From the NCBI GenBank assembly GCA_019241425.1, contig JAFAXA010000047.1, positions 1 through 35,742 of the forward strand: a stretch of 35,742 nucleotides of DNA, in the 5' to 3' direction. The translations under genes and the position numbers were made by a program. Within the stretch, counting starts at the first letter, position 1. Each line of letters starts with the position of its first letter. The notes beneath the pieces are model-generated. The model was not told the DNA's origin, made no database searches, and was given only the letters and a program-made list of their open reading frames with translations. This DNA is from Acetobacteraceae bacterium. Its GTDB lineage: Bacteria; Pseudomonadota; Alphaproteobacteria; Acetobacterales; Acetobacteraceae. Of the stretch, positions 8,640 through 24,916 are shown piece by piece.

Positions 8640-10997
8640 TTATCCAAGACCGATGTCCGCCGGTTGTCCAGGAGGCGCGCCGTTCCCATCGTCCGGCATC
8701 CGGCGGCACACTTTCCTGAGCGTGTCGCGCAACTGGCGCAAGGTGAACGGCTTGCGCAAAACGGCCGCGAGCATCCTCTCGGCGCCGCCGGGATGGGAAA
8801 AATCGGCGTAGCCGGTGGCGAGGACGATCGGTTGTGTCCATCCACGCCCACGAATGGCGGCGGTGAGTTCGAGGCCGTTCATGAACGGCATCGCGAAATC
8901 GACGATCAAGAGGTCCCAGTTTTCCGGGTGCTCGCCGAGCAACGCCAGGGCTTCGACGCCGCCGGGCACGTCGCAAACCCGGTAGCCCAGCTCGCCGAGC
9001 ATCGCGGCGGTTGCCAGCCGCACGTCGGAATCGTCGTCGACGATCAGCACGCCGATCCCCGAACGGCTGGCGGGTCCTGGCGCCGGATGCCCGCCCACCT
9101 CGGCCGATTGCATCGCGCGCGGCAACAGCACCGACACGGTCGTGCCCCGACCCAGATCGCTGGCAATCCTGAGCGCACCTCCCGATTGCCGCGCCATGCC
9201 GTAGACCTGGCTAAGGCCCAGTCCCGAAAACCCCGGCCCCTTGGTGGTGAAGAAGGGTTCGATCGCCCGGGCGGCGGTCTCCGGCGGCATGCCCACGCCG
9301 GTGTCGCACACATCGATGCGCACATAGTCGCCCTCGTCGACATCGTCCTGGTTGCCGGCCGGAACCCATTCATTGGCCGTGGAGATCGTCAGGGTTCCGC
9401 CTTCGAGCATGGCCTCGCCCGCATTAAAGGCGAGGTTGAGGATGGCTGCCTCGAGCTGGCTGCGGTCGGCCATGGCAAGCCAAAGCTTGGGCGCGAAGGC
9501 CGTGACGACCTCGACCCGGCGACCGAGCGCCGACATCGCAAGGGTCCCGAGATCGGCTGCCAGAAGATTGAGATCGATCGGGCCGTTGGAAAGCCGCTGC
9601 CGGCGTGAGAAGGCGAGCAGGCGGGAGGTGAGCTGCGCGCCCCGCTGCACGGCGGCAATCGCGCGTTCGACCCAGGATTTCAGCCGTGGATCATCCTCGG
9701 GCAGGCGCCGTTCCAGCAGTTCCAGATTGCCGAGCACGGTCGCCAGCATGTTGTTGAACTCGTGCGCGACACCGCCCGCAAGCTGGCCGACCGCTTGCAG
9801 CTTCTGGGCGCGTTGCAGGGCGACTTCCGTGCGCTCGCGTTCGATGATCTCGACATGGAGACGGTTATTCGTCTCGGACAGCGCGCGTGTGCGCTCCTCT
9901 ACGCGCTCTTCGAGCAGAAGTGCGTGACTCATCCGTTCGTCCTCCCGTTTTTTGAGAGCGGACACCAGTTCGTTGTATGCGGTCGCCAATTGACGGAGTT
10001 CGGTCGCCGCGACCGGGACCGGCGCGCGGGCAGAGAGATCGCCGCGCCGCCAGCGCTCGGCGGTTTGCAGCAACATCCGGGTTGGCCGGGTGATCCATCG
10101 CTGTCCCGACAACCAGGCAAAGGCGAACGCGACCGCCGCCGCCGCCGCGCGCAGTAAACCGCCGCGCCACATCGCTGCCTCGATCCCCGCGGTCGCGTCG
10201 GCCGCGTAGAAGCCGCTGGCAACGAAAAGCCCGAAGGGTGCGACCGTCGCCGGGACATAGCCGACGATGCGCGGCTGCCCCTCGCGGTCCGCCAGCATCG
10301 CGGTTCCGGCCGTTGCCGCGTTGACCAGCCCGAGCACGCTCGCCGCGACCGTTTTGCCGATCCAGTGTTCGGGATCGGCCGACCGGAACAGAAGCACGCC
10401 GTGCCGGTCGGCGACGGCGAGCGTTCGTCTGTCGCCGCCCTGGGCGTCGCCGTGCGAGAGCAGCGGCGCCAGCAGGTCGGGCAACCTACGCAGATCGAGC
10501 GCCGCGATCAGATAGCGGGGCGCGCCGCTTTCTGCTCTGTAGCGCAAAGCAAACGGCAGAAATGCATCCGACCCGTCGATCTGCGTGTAATCGCCGGTCT
10601 GAAATTCGGGACTGTTCGCCGCGTCCACCTGCCATCCGGCGTTCTGCAATGGCCCGGCGGGCACGCCGCCGGCCGAGCAGAGGACCTGGCCGGACTCGGT
10701 CGTCACCGCCATGAACCGGTACCGGGGCAGCCCGGCATGCATGTCGGCCAGCAGCCCGTCACATCCGGGCGCCGCCTCACGGAGCTGCGGTATGCGGGTG
10801 GCGGCGCGTGCGATGTCGTGTGTAGCGGTGACAAGTTGCTGCAGCGCGGCGTTCAGCAGCGCGGCTTCCTGGCGCGCCCGGTCGGCCAGTTCGGCCCGCC
10901 GGGCATCCCGCAGATCCGCTTCGGTGTAGAGAGCCGCTCCCAAGACGGGTAGCAGAGCCAGACAGACGAGAAGTGATAGGCGCGCCGTAAGCCGCAT
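8640..10997 (-). CDS. Membrane-bound hybrid sensor histidine kinase/response regulator
   Basis: A 785-residue hybrid kinase. Order: membrane helix (~5-25); a ~250-residue periplasmic sensor region that looks like a double-Cache fold (FMAVTTESGQVLCS; LLFRSADPEHWIGK); second membrane helix (281-297); HAMP (~298-352); coiled coil (~355-400); HisKA with phospho-acceptor His412 in GGVAHEFNN; HATPase_c with N box NLAFNAGEAM, G1 DTGVGM and GLGLSQVYGM; then a C-terminal receiver with the acidic pair in VDDDSD, phospho-acceptor Asp700 in LIVDFAMP and Lys749 in RKPF. All key residues are present. I chose the ATG at 10997 because it directly precedes the first membrane helix; an in-frame extension to 11129 would be hydrophilic. 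No separate regulator gene is adjacent, so its output partner is unknown. Confidence 0.92.
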   Translation of the reverse strand: MRLTARLSLLVCLALLPVLGAALYTEADLRDARRAELADRARQEAALLNAALQQLVTATHDIARAATRIPQLREAAPGCDGLLADMHAGLPRYRFMAVTTESGQVLCSAGGVPAGPLQNAGWQVDAANSPEFQTGDYTQIDGSDAFLPFALRYRAESGAPRYLIAALDLRRLPDLLAPLLSHGDAQGGDRRTLAVADRHGVLLFRSADPEHWIGKTVAASVLGLVNAATAGTAMLADREGQPRIVGYVPATVAPFGLFVASGFYAADATAGIEAAMWRGGLLRAAAAAVAFAFAWLSGQRWITRPTRMLLQTAERWRRGDLSARAPVPVAATELRQLATAYNELVSALKKREDERMSHALLLEERVEERTRALSETNNRLHVEIIERERTEVALQRAQKLQAVGQLAGGVAHEFNNMLATVLGNLELLERRLPEDDPRLKSWVERAIAAVQRGAQLTSRLLAFSRRQRLSNGPIDLNLLAADLGTLAMSALGRRVEVVTAFAPKLWLAMADRSQLEAAILNLAFNAGEAMLEGGTLTISTANEWVPAGNQDDVDEGDYVRIDVCDTGVGMPPETAARAIEPFFTTKGPGFSGLGLSQVYGMARQSGGALRIASDLGRGTTVSVLLPRAMQSAEVGGHPAPGPASRSGIGVLIVDDDSDVRLATAAMLGELGYRVCDVPGGVEALALLGEHPENWDLLIVDFAMPFMNGLELTAAIRGRGWTQPIVLATGYADFSHPGGAERMLAAVLRKPFTLRQLRDTLRKVCRRMPDDGNGAPPGQPADIGLG

Positions 10998-11129
10998 ACT
11001 TTGGTTGATCCGCCTTTGGACAGCCCGTTTTGTCTTAGTTAGTAGGCTGGTTTCTTCGGACAACCTTAAGGGGTGGTTAATGGCTGTTATGCATCTCAAG
11101 GTAGTCAGGGGAGGGCGCTGGAAGATCAC

Positions 11130-19500: not shown

Positions 19501-19758
19501 TCAGCGCCGTCCCGCGGCCCAATACATGAGCCAACGGGCGGGAAACACCCACGCGACGCCCGTGACCGCGAAATACAGTGCGGCACGCCAGCCCGTGCCG
19601 CCGAGATGATCTGCGAGGGTGACCACGACCGCAACGTAAGCGGCGAAACCGGCGAGGCCGGCGCAGCTCGCGATCCAGACGCGGCTCACCGGCGCGCGGA
19701 GCGGCGACGCGCGGGACGGCGGCGGGAGGTTGCCTGGGCGCCAACTCTCATCGTACAC
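19501..19758 (-). CDS. DUF2842 small membrane protein
   Basis: An 85-residue protein with two predicted membrane helices (LAGFAAYVAVVVTLADHLGG and ALYFAVTGVAWVFPARWLMY). The spacing, the LADHL between helices and the WVFPARWLMYW end match DUF2842, a small alphaproteobacterial family of unknown function. The start is uncertain: GTG at 19758 (used here) gives a 28-residue hydrophilic leader; an in-frame GTG before SRVWIAS would give a shorter protein. Convergent with the hydroquinone reductase and divergent from apt. Confidence 0.7.
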   Translation of the reverse strand: MYDESWRPGNLPPPSRASPLRAPVSRVWIASCAGLAGFAAYVAVVVTLADHLGGTGWRAALYFAVTGVAWVFPARWLMYWAAGRR

Positions 19759-19796: not shown

Positions 19797-20312
19797 ATGG
19801 ATCTGAAGGAGTGTATCCGCGGGATTCCCGATTTCCCGAAGCCCGGTATCCTCTTCTACGACATTTCGACGCTGCTGCGGGACGCCGATGGCTGGCAGGT
19901 CGCGATGGGACGCATGGCGCGCGCCGTTCGGCCGTATCAGCCCGACATTCTGGCGGGGGTCGAGAGCCGCGGCTTCCTGATCGCGGCGCCGCTCGCGCTC
20001 AAGCTCGGTTGCGGCTTCATCATGCTGCGCAAACCCGGCAAGCTGCCGGGGCAGACGGTGGGGCTCGACTACACCTTGGAATACAGATCGGACCGTATCG
20101 AGATGCAGGCCGACGCCGTGGAGAAGGGGCAGAAGGTCGTGGTCGTCGATGATCTGCTCGCGACGGGCGGCACGATGAAGGCCGGCATCGATCTGCTGCG
20201 AAGCAGCGGCGCGGTGGTGGCGGCAGTGGGGGCGCTCATCGAACTGGCGTTCCTGAACGGCCGATCCAAGCTCGACGTGCCGGTGGAGACGCTGATTTCA
20301 TACGATCGGTAG
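19797..20312 (+). CDS. apt: Adenine phosphoribosyltransferase
   Basis: A 171-residue purine salvage enzyme that makes AMP from adenine and PRPP. It begins with the family's [18 protein letters not shown]. The PRPP-binding motif is [18 protein letters not shown], and [17 protein letters not shown] and LRKPGKLPG are also diagnostic. Normal length. AAGGGGG lies just upstream of the ATG. Monocistronic by position. Confidence 0.95.
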
Positions 20313-20663
20313 TCGGGCTTCGCTTAGGTTTCGGAGGTCGGCCGCGCTGCCGATTGCGGGAAGGTAAGCCGCCGGTCGCCGTGCCGTTTCGCGGTTGAGC
20401 AGCCAGGGACCATCCATGCGCCGATGACGGGCCTCATCCGCCACGCGCCGTGCTATCGTTTTGGTTGTTCAACGAAAGCGGCGCACCCATGCACCTTCTC
20501 GGTATGTTCCTTTTCGCGGCGTTGTTTCTGCGGGTCGCCGCAGCGCTTGCCGGCCCGCTCTGCCTGATCTGGGTCGTGCTCTGGTTGACCGGCCAGTTCT
20601 GATCCGGAGCGGCCGGGCGGGCGGTTTCCTGCTTCTTCCCGGCCTGTCCGCCGCCCGCGCGTT
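20313..20663. other. apt/flbT intergenic region
   Basis: A 351-bp gap between apt and the flbT stop. It holds one short candidate gene (20489-20602). About 35 bases before that ATG, TGCTATCG resembles an extended -10 element, but no convincing -35 is seen. The first ~130 bases after apt hold nothing I can recognise. Confidence 0.4.
20489..20602 (+). CDS. Candidate 37-residue single-helix membrane peptide
   Basis: An open frame starting at ATG 20489, MHLLGMFLFAALFLRVAAAL, followed by a 17-residue hydrophobic tail ending WLTGQF. Almost the whole peptide is hydrophobic, with one Arg, so it could be a small membrane protein. The ribosome site is weak (GAAAGCGG), and an extended -10-like TGCTATCG lies upstream. 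In GC-rich DNA such frames can be chance, so this is a candidate only. Confidence 0.3.
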   Translation: MHLLGMFLFAALFLRVAAALAGPLCLIWVVLWLTGQF

Positions 20664-21131
20664 TTACTTGACGGCGGCGACCGCGTCGCGTGCCTCGGCC
20701 GCGTGGGCCGGGCGGAACATCGGCGCGGCGTCTTCGGCGGCGCGGCCCAGCACCGCATCCTCGTGTCGGATGATCTGCCGCACCAGCTTCAGCGCTTGAT
20801 AGCAGTCATCGGCTTCGGCGGCGGCCAGCGCCCGATCGAGGATCTGGCCGCCGAGCGCCGAGGTGGTCGCGGCCTTCCACTCGGCGACAAGGCGATGTGC
20901 ATCGCCGAGGCCGGCCGCCCGTTCCTCGGCGGAACCGATATAGGCGCATTGCAAAGCGAAATAGATCCGGCGGGCCGGGCTGTCGGCCTGCTCCGGGCGC
21001 ATGATCTGCTTGCCGAACAGGAACCGCGCCTTGGCGGTGAGTTCGATGCGTGCCTTGGTGCGAAACCGGATGGGCGCGCCGTTGATGATCATCATCTCAC
21101 CCTGGCGCAGCTCGAGAACCAGATTGGACAT
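20664..21131 (-). CDS. flbT: Flagellin synthesis regulator FlbT
   Basis: A 155-residue protein of the alphaproteobacterial FlbT family, which binds flagellin mRNA and controls its translation and stability in step with flagellum assembly, usually together with FlaF. The N-terminus MSNLVLELRQGEMMIINGAP, then ARFLFGKQIMRPEQADSPAR and RIYFALQCAYIG are the family's hallmark. The C-terminal helical part (ALAAAEADDCYQALKLVRQI) is also typical. It lies 84 bases downstream of a collapsed flagellin frame on the same strand; no flaF is present between them. The start ATG at 21131 opens directly into the conserved region. Confidence 0.9.
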   Translation of the reverse strand: MSNLVLELRQGEMMIINGAPIRFRTKARIELTAKARFLFGKQIMRPEQADSPARRIYFALQCAYIGSAEERAAGLGDAHRLVAEWKAATTSALGGQILDRALAAAEADDCYQALKLVRQIIRHEDAVLGRAAEDAAPMFRPAHAAEARDAVAAVK

Positions 21132-21215
21132 GTATCTCCGTTCCGGTCGGGCCGGCGGCGTCGGGGTTGAAAGGCGGCTGGACGGTCGGCCACGGGATGT
21201 TGGCCGCCGGTGGTC

Positions 21216-21617
21216 TTACTCGCAGAGGCTAAGCAGCGTTTGTGGCACCTGGTAGGCAATCGGGAGCGCCCCGGCCGCGCGTTGCTGCCGCAATTGCAGC
21301 GCCCGCAGTTGAGCGGTCTCCTTCGGCAGGTCGGCATCGGTCAAAGAGGCGCGCAGGCAATCCCCGTTTCCGGGCCGCCCGTTCGCGGTGGCCGACGCGC
21401 CCGCCTCCGCGCGCGCATGCCGGGCAACGGGGCCCGCGCGCTCGTCGCTCGCGAAGGCGACACGGTAGCCGGTCGAGGCAGGCGTCGGCGCTTGTTGCAA
21501 GCCGGCGGGCGGCGTGCGAAGCGAGAGCCGGGTGACGATGTTGGCGGGCGGAGACAGGGCGTGTGATCCTATGTTTCCGAGGTCAAAGCATGCCCCGATT
21601 TTCGGCGACGGTTTCAT
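21216..21617 (-). pseudogene. Flagellin remnant: N- and C-terminal segments with the centre missing
   Basis: A 133-residue frame. The C-terminal ~44 residues (SLTDADLPKETAQLRALQLR, then ALPIAYQVPQTLLSL) match the D0/D1 C-terminus of alphaproteobacterial flagellins. Residues ~22-63 resemble the flagellin N-terminus: NIVTRLSLRTPPAGLQQ, a heptad-like stretch, followed by STGYRVAFASDERAG (compare the family's STGYRVxxAxD). Only ~26 residues (64-89), rich in Ala, Gly and Arg, separate the two halves, whereas flagellins have at least 150. Several prolines (SPPAN, RTPPAG, APTPAS) stand in what should be a coiled-coil helix, pointing to decay rather than a working mini-flagellin. Its place directly upstream of flbT is the normal place for a flagellin gene. 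The N-terminal match is weaker than the C-terminal one. Confidence 0.5.
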
Positions 21618-21912
21618 TCTGGCGAGCCTGAATTAATGGCCCGTGAAACGCGCGCCCCGCTCCGGATCAGCAGAGAAATTTGGTCAGAGACAGGCCGCTA
21701 GCCGGGGAAGCTGACAGACGCTTGCATGATCCGGACGGCGGTTTCCAATCCGCTCATTGGCGATGATGTTTGATCGCCTGGCGCCCCGATGCAGCGTCTG
21801 CGGTCCGCCTGCCCCGGTTCGCGCGGCGATGGTTGCGCGCGCAGAAGAGCGCCCGGCGGTGCGGCCGGGGCCGCCTTGCTGGCCTCCTGGCGATTTGATA
21901 CTCGAATTGCCG

Positions 21913-22674
21913 ATGACGCGGTCGATTTGGCTCTTCGCCGCCCTGCTTCTCGCCGGCATGTCCGCCGGGGCGGCGGCGCACGAGGATGCCGGGCCCTGCG
22001 AGATCCCGCAGCAATTCGTCACCAGCGAGGACACGCTTTCGCATGTAGGCGCTGCCTTGGCCGCGAAGCAGCCGGTGGAGGTGCTCGCGATCGGGTCGGC
22101 GACGACGGTCGGGCAGGATCTGATGCCGCAGGGCACCTCGTTTCCGTATCGCATGATCGAGGACATGCGGGCGGCACTGCACGACGCCGATTTGCGCATC
22201 ACGGTGCTGGGCGGGCGCGGGCTTGCCGCGTCCGAGATGCTCGACCTTTTGCGGACGGCGTTGCAGCGCCAGCATTTCGCGCTGGTGCTCTGGCAGACCG
22301 GCACGGTGGAGGCGGTGCGCGGCCTCCCGCCCGAGGAGTTTCGGGCGGTGCTGGAACAGGGGATCGACGCCATTGCGGCGCAAGGCGGCGACACGCTGCT
22401 GATCGACCCGCAATTCAGCCGCTTTCTGCAATCCCAGGCGGAACTGGAACCCTACGAGGCGGTCTTTCGCGAGGAGGACGCCCGGCGCGGCGTGATCGCG
22501 TTCCGGCGTTTCGACCTGATGCGGCAATGGGCGGAGAACGGCGAACTCGATCTCGAACATGTCAGCCGCGACAATCGTGGGCCGGCGCTCGATAAGCTGC
22601 ACGGCTGTCTCGGCACCGCCCTGAGCCGGCTGGTGGTCGCGGCGGCGGCGGGGAGCGGCGCGCCGCATCCGTAG
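21913..22674 (+). CDS. SGNH/GDSL-family hydrolase-like periplasmic protein
   Basis: A 253-residue protein with a signal peptide (SIWLFAALLLAGMSAGAAA, cleaved before HEDAG). Block I is EVLAIGSATTVGQ, with the nucleophile candidate Ser62; block II Gly lies in VLGGRG; block III is WQTGTVEA, where the usual Asn of GTND is Val132; block V is likely LDKLHGCLG with Asp227 and His230. Members deacylate or remodel periplasmic substrates. Loss of the oxyanion Asn makes activity uncertain. An in-frame extension to 21757 exists, but the signal peptide argues for the ATG at 21913. Divergent from the flagellin remnant, with 295 bases between. Confidence 0.72.
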   Translation: MTRSIWLFAALLLAGMSAGAAAHEDAGPCEIPQQFVTSEDTLSHVGAALAAKQPVEVLAIGSATTVGQDLMPQGTSFPYRMIEDMRAALHDADLRITVLGGRGLAASEMLDLLRTALQRQHFALVLWQTGTVEAVRGLPPEEFRAVLEQGIDAIAAQGGDTLLIDPQFSRFLQSQAELEPYEAVFREEDARRGVIAFRRFDLMRQWAENGELDLEHVSRDNRGPALDKLHGCLGTALSRLVVAAAAGSGAPHP

Positions 22675-22928: not shown

Positions 22929-23458
22929 ATCCGGCCTGTCGCACGCAGCCACAGCATCAGCAGGCCGTCCACCAACACCGCCGGGAGTTCGCGCCCGCGC
23001 CAGTACCAGCGCATCAGCAGCGCGTGAGAGGCCGGAAAGGCGGGCGGCGGGCAAGCCTGCGCGGCGACGCCCGCCAAGCGCAGCAGCATCAGGCAGCGCG
23101 GCAGATGGTAGACGCTCGTCGCCGCGAAGACCGGTCCGCAAAGGCCGCGTTCATCACGCATCCGGCGGATCGCCCGCACGGAGGACAGGGTCGACGTTGC
23201 GGTCTCTTCCAGCAGCACGCGGTCGGGGGGAACGCCGAGCGCGGCCAGCAGATCCGCCATCACGGAGGCTTCGGACGCACCGAAGCGGCCGACGGCGCCG
23301 GTGGGGACGTACCACGGGCTCGGCAGCCGGGCGCCGAACGCGGCGGCGGCTTCGACCCGGCGGCGCAAGGTTTGGCTCGGCGTGCCGTCGCGCCGGACGG
23401 CGGCGCCGAAGATCACGATCGCGGGCGCGTCGTCGCCGGCGCGCGGAGGCTCAGCCAT
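22925..23458 (-). CDS. YdcF/SanA/ElyC-like DUF218 domain protein
   Basis: A 177-residue protein with a DUF218 domain: IVIFGAAVRRDGTPSQTLRR (the family's GxxxxxxGxPSxxLxxR), YVPTGAVGRFG and EASVMADLL, VLLEETATSTLSSVRAIRRM, then FAATSVYHLPRCLMLLRLAG. DUF218 proteins are linked to envelope biogenesis in enterobacteria (ElyC, SanA); YdcF binds S-adenosylmethionine. No N-terminal membrane anchor is seen, but a hydrophobic LVDGLLMLWLRATG ends the protein. Its ATG overlaps the end of the MfnB-like/FolB-like gene by eight bases, so the two are translationally coupled. Confidence 0.85.
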   Translation of the reverse strand: MAEPPRAGDDAPAIVIFGAAVRRDGTPSQTLRRRVEAAAAFGARLPSPWYVPTGAVGRFGASEASVMADLLAALGVPPDRVLLEETATSTLSSVRAIRRMRDERGLCGPVFAATSVYHLPRCLMLLRLAGVAAQACPPPAFPASHALLMRWYWRGRELPAVLVDGLLMLWLRATGRI

Positions 23459-24266
23459 GCGCCGGCTGCTCCCCGCGCACTCGCACGATTTCGACGCCCA
23501 CCACGCACGGGCATACGTCGAGCTTCTCGATCCGCACGCTCACCCGCATGGCGCGCGGGTGCCGCAGCAATTGCGCGGCGATGCGCTCCGCCAGACTTTC
23601 GATCACGATCCAGTGGCCGGAGGCGGTGAGCAGCCGGATGGCGTCGAGGATCCCCTTCTCCGGCGATGACGGACCGCCATCCGGGAGGGCGAGGATGAGG
23701 GCGTCCGGCTCGAGTTCCAGGAGCCGCGGCACGTCCGGCGCTTCGAACGGGCCGCACAGGCCGGCGGCGAGACGGGCGGCGGCGCAGGCGCGAACGAAGC
23801 GGCCGATCGTCGCGACCGGCAGGCGCTCCGGGCTGCGCCCGCGGCTCAGATCCAGCCGCGCCCCGGCGAACCCGGCGGCGGCGCAGGCGCCGAGCCAGTC
23901 GGCAGGGTCCGCTTCGCCGGTGCCGATCGCCGCGTGGACGCTGCCGGGCGGAAGCTCCGCCGCGATCCGGCGACAGGTCGCCGCGGTCTCCGCGCCGTCG
24001 CTCACCGGAAGGATCACGTAATCGGCACCCTGCGCGAGCGCCTGGCGCGCGGCGTCGATCAGGGCGGCGACCGTCGGCATCGGCGGGATCGCAGCGCCCA
24101 GCGGACACCGCCCGCCGATTGCTTCGGCGATCGGTGCCACCCCTTCCGGGGAGGCCGCCTCGACGCCGTCCGCCCCGGCGGCATGCGCCGCGCGCGCCGC
24201 CTCGCGGCTGGCCACGCGGACGATCAGGCGGGTCAAGCGGGAACTCTGCGGCCCATGCGAAACCAT
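23451..24266 (-). CDS. MfnB-like domain fused to a C-terminal FolB (dihydroneopterin aldolase-like) half domain
   Basis: 271 residues. Residues ~10-200 look like the DUF556/MfnB TIM barrel ((5-formylfuran-4-yl)methyl phosphate synthase): LIVRVASREAARAAHAAGAD, QGADYVILPV, FAGARLDLSRG and LAAGLCGPFEAPDVPRLLEL align with the family's landmarks in order. The Schiff-base Lys region (family VKNPKEG) reads EAASPEG, and other family lysines (KVG, MLDTAxK) are also replaced. Residues ~201-262 (GILDAIRLLTASGHWIVIES, LAERIAAQLLRHPRAM, VSVRIEKLDV, VVGVEI) match the second half of dihydroneopterin aldolase, keeping its Glu (IES) and Lys (RIEK); the first half with the catalytic Tyr is absent. Start: ATG at 24266. 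Divergent from paoA-like, coupled to the YdcF-like gene. Both domain calls are by eye. Catalysis is doubtful. Confidence 0.6.
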   Translation of the reverse strand: MVSHGPQSSRLTRLIVRVASREAARAAHAAGADGVEAASPEGVAPIAEAIGGRCPLGAAIPPMPTVAALIDAARQALAQGADYVILPVSDGAETAATCRRIAAELPPGSVHAAIGTGEADPADWLGACAAAGFAGARLDLSRGRSPERLPVATIGRFVRACAAARLAAGLCGPFEAPDVPRLLELEPDALILALPDGGPSSPEKGILDAIRLLTASGHWIVIESLAERIAAQLLRHPRAMRVSVRIEKLDVCPCVVGVEIVRVRGEQPAHG

Positions 24267-24400
24267 GGCATGGGGAGGTTCGGCGCTCCACCGCCCCGGG
24301 GCGTGGTGGTGGACGGGAACATTCGGCAGAGGCTTGCGCTTACACGCGGCGCGGCCAATTCGGACCGCGTGCGGTGGCTGAACTTTCGGGAAGGCGGATC

Positions 24401-24916
24401 GTGGGAACAGAAGCAAGCGCGGCCGGCGTTTTCTCGGCGGCGGTCCGTCCGGTCACGCTGTCCGTCAACGGCGCAGATCGCGAACTCAGGATCGCGCCGT
24501 GGACGACCTTGCTCGACGGGTTGCGCGAGTATCTCGGCCTGACCGGAACCAAGAAGGGCTGCGACCACGGACAGTGCGGCGCTTGCACGGTTCTCGTCGA
24601 TGGCGTGCGCATCAATTCCTGCCTCACGCTTGCCGTGATGCACGAGGGCGCGACCATACGAACGATCGAGGGTATCGGCGCGGAGGGTGCGCTGCATCCG
24701 TTGCAGCAGGCATTCATCGATCATGACGCCTTTCAATGCGGCTACTGTACGCCCGGCCAGATCTGTTCGGCGACGGGGCTGATCGCGGAGGGCCGCGCCC
24801 GAACGCCGGAGGAGATCCGCGAGCTGATGAGCGGCAATCTCTGTCGCTGCGGCGCTTATCCGAACATCGTCGCCGCGATCGAACATGCGATGCGGGTCGC
24901 GGAGACGGCGCCATGA
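24401..24916 (+). CDS. paoA: 2Fe-2S subunit of PaoABC/YagTSR-type molybdenum aldehyde oxidoreductase
   Basis: A 171-residue iron-sulfur subunit of a xanthine-oxidase-family enzyme. The first cluster is held by Cys54, 59, 62 and 74 ([17 protein letters not shown] ... NSC), the second by Cys113, 116, 148 and 150 ([18 protein letters not shown]). It passes electrons from the Mo site to FAD. GTG at 24401 has AAGGCGG upstream and gives a short leader without the twin-arginine signal of E. coli PaoA, so the enzyme may be cytosolic. The stop overlaps the next ATG by four bases. Gene symbol is by similarity. Confidence 0.88.

What the first reader, a model, noticed from the sequence alone, without database searches (positions are those of the whole stretch)
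21216..21617. Collapsed flagellin: both ends kept, centre lost
The sequence shows a flagellin-like C-terminus (TDADLPKETAQLRALQLRQQ and PQTLLSL) and a weaker N-terminal half ending STGYRV, joined by about 26 residues instead of the 150 or more of known flagellins. The frame remains open. Either this is a recently shortened relic that has kept its frame, or a working mini-flagellin. Prolines inside the N-terminal helix argue for decay; the open frame and adjacent flbT argue for some maintenance.
Basis: partly seen in the sequence, partly recalled or inferred. Interest (0 to 1): 0.65.

Follow-up and report, generated by a model that had tools for sequence, protein, structure and literature searches.

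The report
Dead flagellin beside a kept regulator
A bacterium that seems to have lost its swimming tail still carries the shrunken, decaying remains of the gene for the tail's building block, while the regulator gene beside it and the old control region look kept, which suggests that the regulator has a job unrelated to swimming.

Summary
The ORF at 21216-21617(-) is a flagellin gene that kept both ends and lost about 165 central codons; it lies 84 bases before an intact flbT. It is a relic rather than a working mini-flagellin. The native ATG has become CTG (21557-21555), and the ORF's ATG lies in the former 5' leader. Bases that 28 flagellated relatives conserve are lost in both ends (118 of 165 kept) but not in flbT (195 of 202). 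The genome has no FlhA, FliG, rod/hook or other flagellin hit; flanking genes show that this is the old flagellar cluster with only flbT and the relic left.

A second genome, of another genus (G087/L107), shows the same locus: a collapsed flagellin and a clean flbT. In both, the promoter/leader is kept, including a CtrA-type box (TTCA-N7-TTAA) found before the flagellin in 27 of 28 flagellated relatives and in 0 of 1745 control stretches.

Best reading: flbT is maintained for a flagellum-independent role, expressed from the old flagellin promoter, while the flagellin frame erodes between them. Its target is unknown. A still-useful mini-flagellin is not excluded but unlikely.

The parts
21216..21617 (-). 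open frame of the collapsed flagellin (133 codons plus stop); codons 1-20 are former 5' leader
21354..21557 (-). decayed N-terminal block of the flagellin (codons 21-88), beginning at CTG where relatives have ATG
   Evidence: 59 of 86 conserved bases kept, 13 more gapped
21219..21347 (-). C-terminal block of the flagellin (codons 91-133)
   Evidence: Flagellin_C E 0.0013; 59 of 79 conserved bases kept
21555..21557 (-). former flagellin start codon, now CTG
   Evidence: DNA alignments
21558..21640 (-). former flagellin 5' leader
   Evidence: 18 of 20 bases conserved in 28 relatives kept (its stretch includes the start codon)
21633..21647 (-). CtrA-type box TTCA-N7-TTAA, 90 bases before the former start
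   Evidence: same box in 27 of 28 intact relatives, 0 of 1745 control stretches; window scan: 3 matches where 0.08 expected
20664..21131 (-). flbT, intact, 155 aa
   Evidence: Pfam FlbT 4.6e-30; 195 of 202 conserved bases kept
19797..20312 (+). apt, left flank; also flanks the flagellar cluster in flagellated relatives
19501..19758 (-). DUF2842 protein, left flank
21757..22674 (+). NonGDSL lipase-like gene (PF25182), right flank; follows flhA and flhF in relatives

Best explanation
This is what remains of a flagellar gene cluster in an acetobacteraceal lineage that lost its flagellum. Shown: the cluster that in relatives lies between apt and a lipase gene is reduced to flbT plus a flagellin gene with its centre deleted and its start codon lost; flbT and the promoter/leader with its CtrA-type box are conserved, the flagellin coding sequence is not. 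Inferred: CtrA still drives transcription from the old flagellin promoter through the relic into flbT, and FlbT, known elsewhere as a post-transcriptional regulator of flagellin mRNA, acts on some other RNA or on its own leader. The flagellin frame is now an eroding spacer, shortened by deletion because nothing needs its protein.
For: Own genome: 0 matches to FlhA, rod/hook, FliG_C; its only Flagellin_C match is the relic. Synteny: in flagellated G002, DUF2842-apt ... flbT-flagellin ... flhF-lipase spans about 27 kb with FlhA between; the window has DUF2842-apt-flbT-relic-lipase. Retention of bases conserved in at least 90% of 28 intact relatives: leader 18 of 20; flagellin N-term 59 of 86, C-term 59 of 79; flbT 195 of 202 (intact rows left out one at a time: mean 0.978). 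flbT against flagellin: Fisher p 6e-12 in the window, 5e-10 in L107. Second genus, G087/L107: leader 19 of 20, N-term 39 of 55, C-term 66 of 79, flbT 199 of 202; no FlhA, FliG or rod/hook. CtrA-type box: 27 of 28 intact, 0 of 1745 controls, present in both relics. In another genus a second FlbT lies away from flagellin, near formate-THF ligase in 6 of 7 congeners fetched (the seventh fragment is short), and it is the one FlbT kept by G016, which has no FlhA, rod/hook or FliG match.
Against: The window FlbT has a long end branch (0.47 against a median of 0.16) and an unusual composition, so some relaxation is possible. Leader against coding is significant only when the two lineages are pooled (p 0.009; singly 0.11 and 0.13). 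Both genomes are draft assemblies (350 and about 300 contigs, 90% and 97% complete). No target of FlbT and no transcript is shown. In G301, another genome without FlhA and rod/hook matches, FlbT shows mild excess change at codon positions 1 and 2, as if retention can be transient. 56 of 79 FlhA-less family genomes have no FlbT match, so it is not needed by all.
Confidence: 0.7

Rival explanations
1. The whole locus is dead. The flagellum was lost too recently for flbT to have decayed; flbT and the relic are both pseudogenes in waiting.
For: Long end branch of the window FlbT; mild relaxation of FlbT in G301; 56 of 79 FlhA-less genomes show no FlbT.
Against: Over the same time the flagellin lost about 28% of its conserved bases and flbT 3.5%, within the spread of intact rows; the same contrast in a second genus.
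Confidence: 0.15
2. The collapsed flagellin is still made and useful: a stripped regulatory flagellin that partners FlbT, as FljJ does in Caulobacter, or a short translated leader that keeps ribosomes on the mRNA and so protects flbT from transcription termination. Both lineages would have shortened it in frame for that reason.
For: Two genera each keep an open frame joining N-terminus and C-terminus, with different junctions; L107 keeps the native ATG; in L107 the C-terminus is kept better than a neutral model fitted to its N-terminus predicts (aa identity 0.73 against about 0.46, my interpolation between rows), and in the window slightly better (0.585 against about 0.43). FlbT binds only FljJ among Caulobacter flagellins tested (PMC7591256, passages).
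Against: Start codon lost in the window; conserved bases eroded in both ends; N and C do not differ significantly in retention (p 0.49 window, 0.09 L107); prolines in the N-terminal stretch that is helical in flagellins (recalled); an open frame has about 15% chance under neutrality.
Confidence: 0.12
3. Assembly artefact: a chimaera of two flagellin copies in a fragmented assembly.
For: The assembly has 350 contigs; flagellins are often multi-copy.
Against: Both ends are far from any intact copy, no intact copy was found in the assembly, and a second assembly shows the same thing at the same place.
Confidence: 0.03

Closest known systems
Flagellin-flbT pair of flagellated Acetobacteraceae (for example L067, L069, L084)
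   Same: Gene order, spacing to flbT, leader and CtrA-type box, both flagellin ends
   Different: Those flagellins have an intact centre and start codon (frames mostly of 281-312 codons) and the ones whose surroundings were read lie in a full flagellar cluster
FljJ, regulatory flagellin of Caulobacter (PMC7591256, passages read)
   Same: A flagellin that cannot build a filament alone and is linked to FlbT
   Different: FljJ is a glycosylated, exported flagellin in a flagellated cell; the relic has lost its start codon and many conserved residues
Partly pseudogenised flagellar genes of Brucella (PMC8781033, passages read)
   Same: flbT listed as a gene beside flagellar pseudogenes
   Different: Brucella keeps many flagellar genes and flagellin; here nothing else was found

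Membership tests
Flagellin (FliC) | Flagellin_N domain (PF00669) | tested here: not met
   no match at E up to 10; homology of the N-terminus seen only against close relatives
Flagellin (FliC) | Flagellin_C domain (PF00700) above curated cut-off | tested here: not met
   19.5 bits against a cut-off of 23; the L107 relic scores 37.1
Flagellin (FliC) | start codon and both conserved ends under constraint | tested here: not met
   CTG start; 118 of 165 conserved bases kept
Flagellin (FliC) | a flagellar export apparatus in the same genome | tested here: not met
   no FlhA, FliG or rod/hook match; assembly 90.45% complete
FlbT | full-length FlbT domain (PF07378) above cut-off | tested here: met
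   104.6 bits against 27
FlbT | purifying constraint like that of flagellated relatives | tested here: met
   195 of 202 conserved bases; intact rows 0.978 on average, lowest 0.932; but long end branch
FlbT | binds flagellin mRNA leader | not testable with these tools
   known in Caulobacter from reviews read in passages
CtrA-dependent promoter | TTAA-N7-TTAA site | tested here: inconclusive
   TTCA-N7-TTAA present and conserved in place; full-site consensus from PMC6180460 passages; binding not tested

The most novel reading that the evidence does not exclude
After flagellum loss, the CtrA box, flagellin leader, collapsed flagellin frame and flbT were re-used together as a small flagellum-independent regulatory operon: the short flagellin-derived peptide or its translation tunes FlbT, which controls other mRNAs in step with the CtrA-driven cell cycle.
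Probability: 0.12. Interest if true: 0.75.

Novelty: new variant of a known kind. Interest (0 to 1): 0.45.

Why it matters
In the papers seen here FlbT is described only as a regulator of flagellin synthesis. Lineages that lost the flagellum but keep flbT, with the flagellin leader still attached, make it testable whether FlbT regulates anything else, and give natural backgrounds in which its other targets can be sought without flagellin in the way.

Tried and rejected
Pfam Flagellin_N on the relic: nothing. Plasmid collection with the relic protein: no match. Rfam over 20000-22500: nothing up to E 0.5. Sigma-70 scan over 20300-21800: no promoter-like site. FlbT in the PDB by sequence: no convincing relative. 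AlphaFold model of FlbT (mean pLDDT 75.6) against the PDB: best E 1.9, so a CsrA-like look of its first strands, which is my own impression, gained no support. FlbT tree: cannot say whether the window and L107 are sisters; holding them together gave a likelihood 7.76 higher, p-AU 0.68, while the free tree put the window beside L067/L096/L102 with weak support. Shared changes in the C-terminus: 2 where 2.2 are expected by chance, so one shared loss is neither shown nor excluded. I first thought that the C-terminus was specially constrained; with corrected boundaries N and C do not differ significantly. In some searches part of the leader was counted with the N-terminus; one search had the leader boundary wrong; one search replaces them. 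One search read some loci on the wrong strand; one search replaces it.

Papers: eight searches returned a listing or a count (one found none). Passages were read of PMC7591256, PMC8781033, PMC3930126, PMC7170780, PMC6169604, PMC4347634 and PMC6180460, none in full. No paper on FlbT in flagellum-less Acetobacteraceae appeared in those listings; subscription journals are mostly not held.

Full report
WHAT IS THERE. The frame at 21216-21617(-) reads 133 codons to a TAA. Its C-terminal 43 codons are plainly flagellin: Pfam Flagellin_C at E 0.0013, under the curated cut-off, and 62-64% identity to flagellins of family genomes in most of the best rows. The N-terminal part has no Pfam hit but matches the same flagellins at about 36% (for example E 2.9e-8 over residues 5-122 in G010). 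A DNA alignment with relatives shows that codons 1-20 lie in the old 5' leader, that the native ATG is CTG at 21557-21555, and that the N-terminal homology runs to about 70 residues before it meets the C-terminal block. Intact flagellin frames beside flbT in relatives are mostly 281-312 codons, so about 165 codons are gone. FlbT lies 84 bases downstream and is complete.

THE GENOME. The window is a whole contig of a 3.58 Mb assembly in 350 contigs, 90.45% complete; its nearest named FlbT relatives are Acetobacteraceae. It has no match for FlhA, the rod/hook domain or FliG_C, and its only Flagellin_C match is the relic. Of 60 genomes in the relatives set, 44 have FlhA, 45 rod/hook and 36 FlbT. 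Independent of completeness, the place itself tells the story. In flagellated G002 the order on one contig is DUF2842, apt, a gene of unknown family, flbT, flagellin, FlhA, flhF, lipase over about 27 kb; G003 is alike over about 23 kb. In the window DUF2842 and apt are followed directly by flbT, the relic and the lipase.

A SECOND CASE. The 80 best FlbT loci of 253 found in genome contigs include L107, labelled Acidisphaera sp. CP_BM_RX_R8_15, whose contig length equals that of G087 contig 82, a 97% complete genome of another genus. There a 97-codon frame directly before flbT contains the native flagellin start and joins, in frame, a decayed N-terminus of about 47 residues to the C-terminus. 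The flanks are the same (apt and DUF2842 on one side, lipase on the other), with an flhF still between relic and lipase. G087 has no FlhA (it is not among the 318 of 397 with a match), FliG or rod/hook match. Among the 79 FlhA-less family genomes (of 397), only these two show a Flagellin_C match limited to the last half of the profile in a short frame before flbT (read). Whether one ancestral loss or two lies behind this is open: the FlbT tree does not decide, the junctions differ, and shared changes equal chance.

WHAT IS KEPT AND WHAT IS NOT. From loci with a full flagellin directly before flbT I took 33 by hand; 28 with a recognised start were used here (L082, L087, L101, L109 and L138 fell out for their start pattern). 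Of bases conserved in at least 90% of these 28, the window keeps 18 of 20 in leader plus start codon, 59 of 86 in the N-terminus (13 more gapped), 59 of 79 in the C-terminus and 195 of 202 in flbT. L107 keeps 19 of 20, 39 of 55 (44 gapped), 66 of 79 and 199 of 202. Intact rows left out one at a time keep 0.946, 0.987, 0.980 and 0.978 on average. flbT against flagellin is p 6e-12 and 5e-10; leader against flagellin is 0.11 and 0.13 singly and 0.009 pooled, where pooling assumes that the two lineages count separately. By codon position, with all 33 intact rows, excess divergence of the window C-terminus is 0.13, 0.18 and 0.15 at positions 1, 2 and 3, as in neutral decay, against -0.02, 0.03 and -0.01 for FlbT. 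Against this, the window FlbT has a long end branch and an odd composition, so full constraint is not proven.

THE PROMOTER. The pattern TTNA-N7-TTAA occurs 84 to 107 bases before the flagellin start in 27 of 28 intact relatives and in none of 1745 other 150-base stretches of the same loci; it is kept in the window (21633-21647, 90 bases before the former start) and in L107 (119 bases before). In the whole window it gives three matches, two of them one palindrome at 11066-11080, where 0.08 are expected. TTAA-N7-TTAA is the full CtrA site (PMC6180460, passages), and CtrA occupies the flbT promoter of Caulobacter (PMC6169604, passages). Binding here is inferred.

FLBT WITHOUT FLAGELLA. Of the 79 FlhA-less family genomes, 23 match FlbT, 20 above the cut-off. 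Rod/hook was then sought in 22 of those 23 plus G162: 17 of 23 have it, so most merely lack FlhA in the assembly. Without FlhA and rod/hook but with FlbT above cut-off remain G000, G087, G016, G301 and G348; none of the five has FliG_C (11 of its 14 genomes had no match, some with rod/hook genes, so that search alone is weak), and G348 holds a flagellin-like frame of 511 codons. In G016 (100% complete) the FlbT lies among non-flagellar genes near formate-THF ligase. Seven genomes of its genus, all with FlhA, carry an FlbT 59-67% identical to it; in six of the seven fragments the same ligase lies nearby and the seventh fragment is short; no flagellin match lies in any of the seven. In G301 FlbT sits by a DUF1217 fragment and shows mild relaxation.

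READING. The flagellin is a relic. The maintained unit is promoter/leader plus flbT. FlbT regulates flagellin mRNA after transcription, as a repressor in Caulobacter and a proposed activator in Brucella (PMC4347634, PMC8781033, passages); in Caulobacter it binds the flagellin FljJ (PMC7591256, passages). What it would act on here is unknown. That the short frame still serves as a FlbT partner or a translated leader is the boldest reading left; the open frame itself is weak evidence, since 15-17% of simulated neutral descendants stay open at this level of decay.

Noticed in passing
window 11066-11080: A second CtrA-type palindrome, TTAAGGGGTGGTTAA, rare in this GC-rich sequence.
   Followed up: no
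L173 (G016) 9159-9527 and L238-L244: A second FlbT near formate-THF ligase, away from flagellin, in one genus; kept by flagellum-less G016.
   Followed up: partly
L176 (G301) 9284-9769: A DUF1217 fragment next to flbT in another genome without FlhA and rod/hook matches.
   Followed up: partly
window 23454-24416: One frame matches 4-HFC-P synthase and, more weakly, FolB, a possible fusion.
   Followed up: no
L097, L098, L100, L111, L126, L135, L146: In several loci the flagellin lies after flbT instead of before it.
   Followed up: no
L071, L085, L097, L117, L139: FlbT loci in records labelled Pirellulales, Nitrosovibrio, Terriglobia, Mycobacterium and Solirubrobacterales look like mislabelled or mixed bins.
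   Followed up: no
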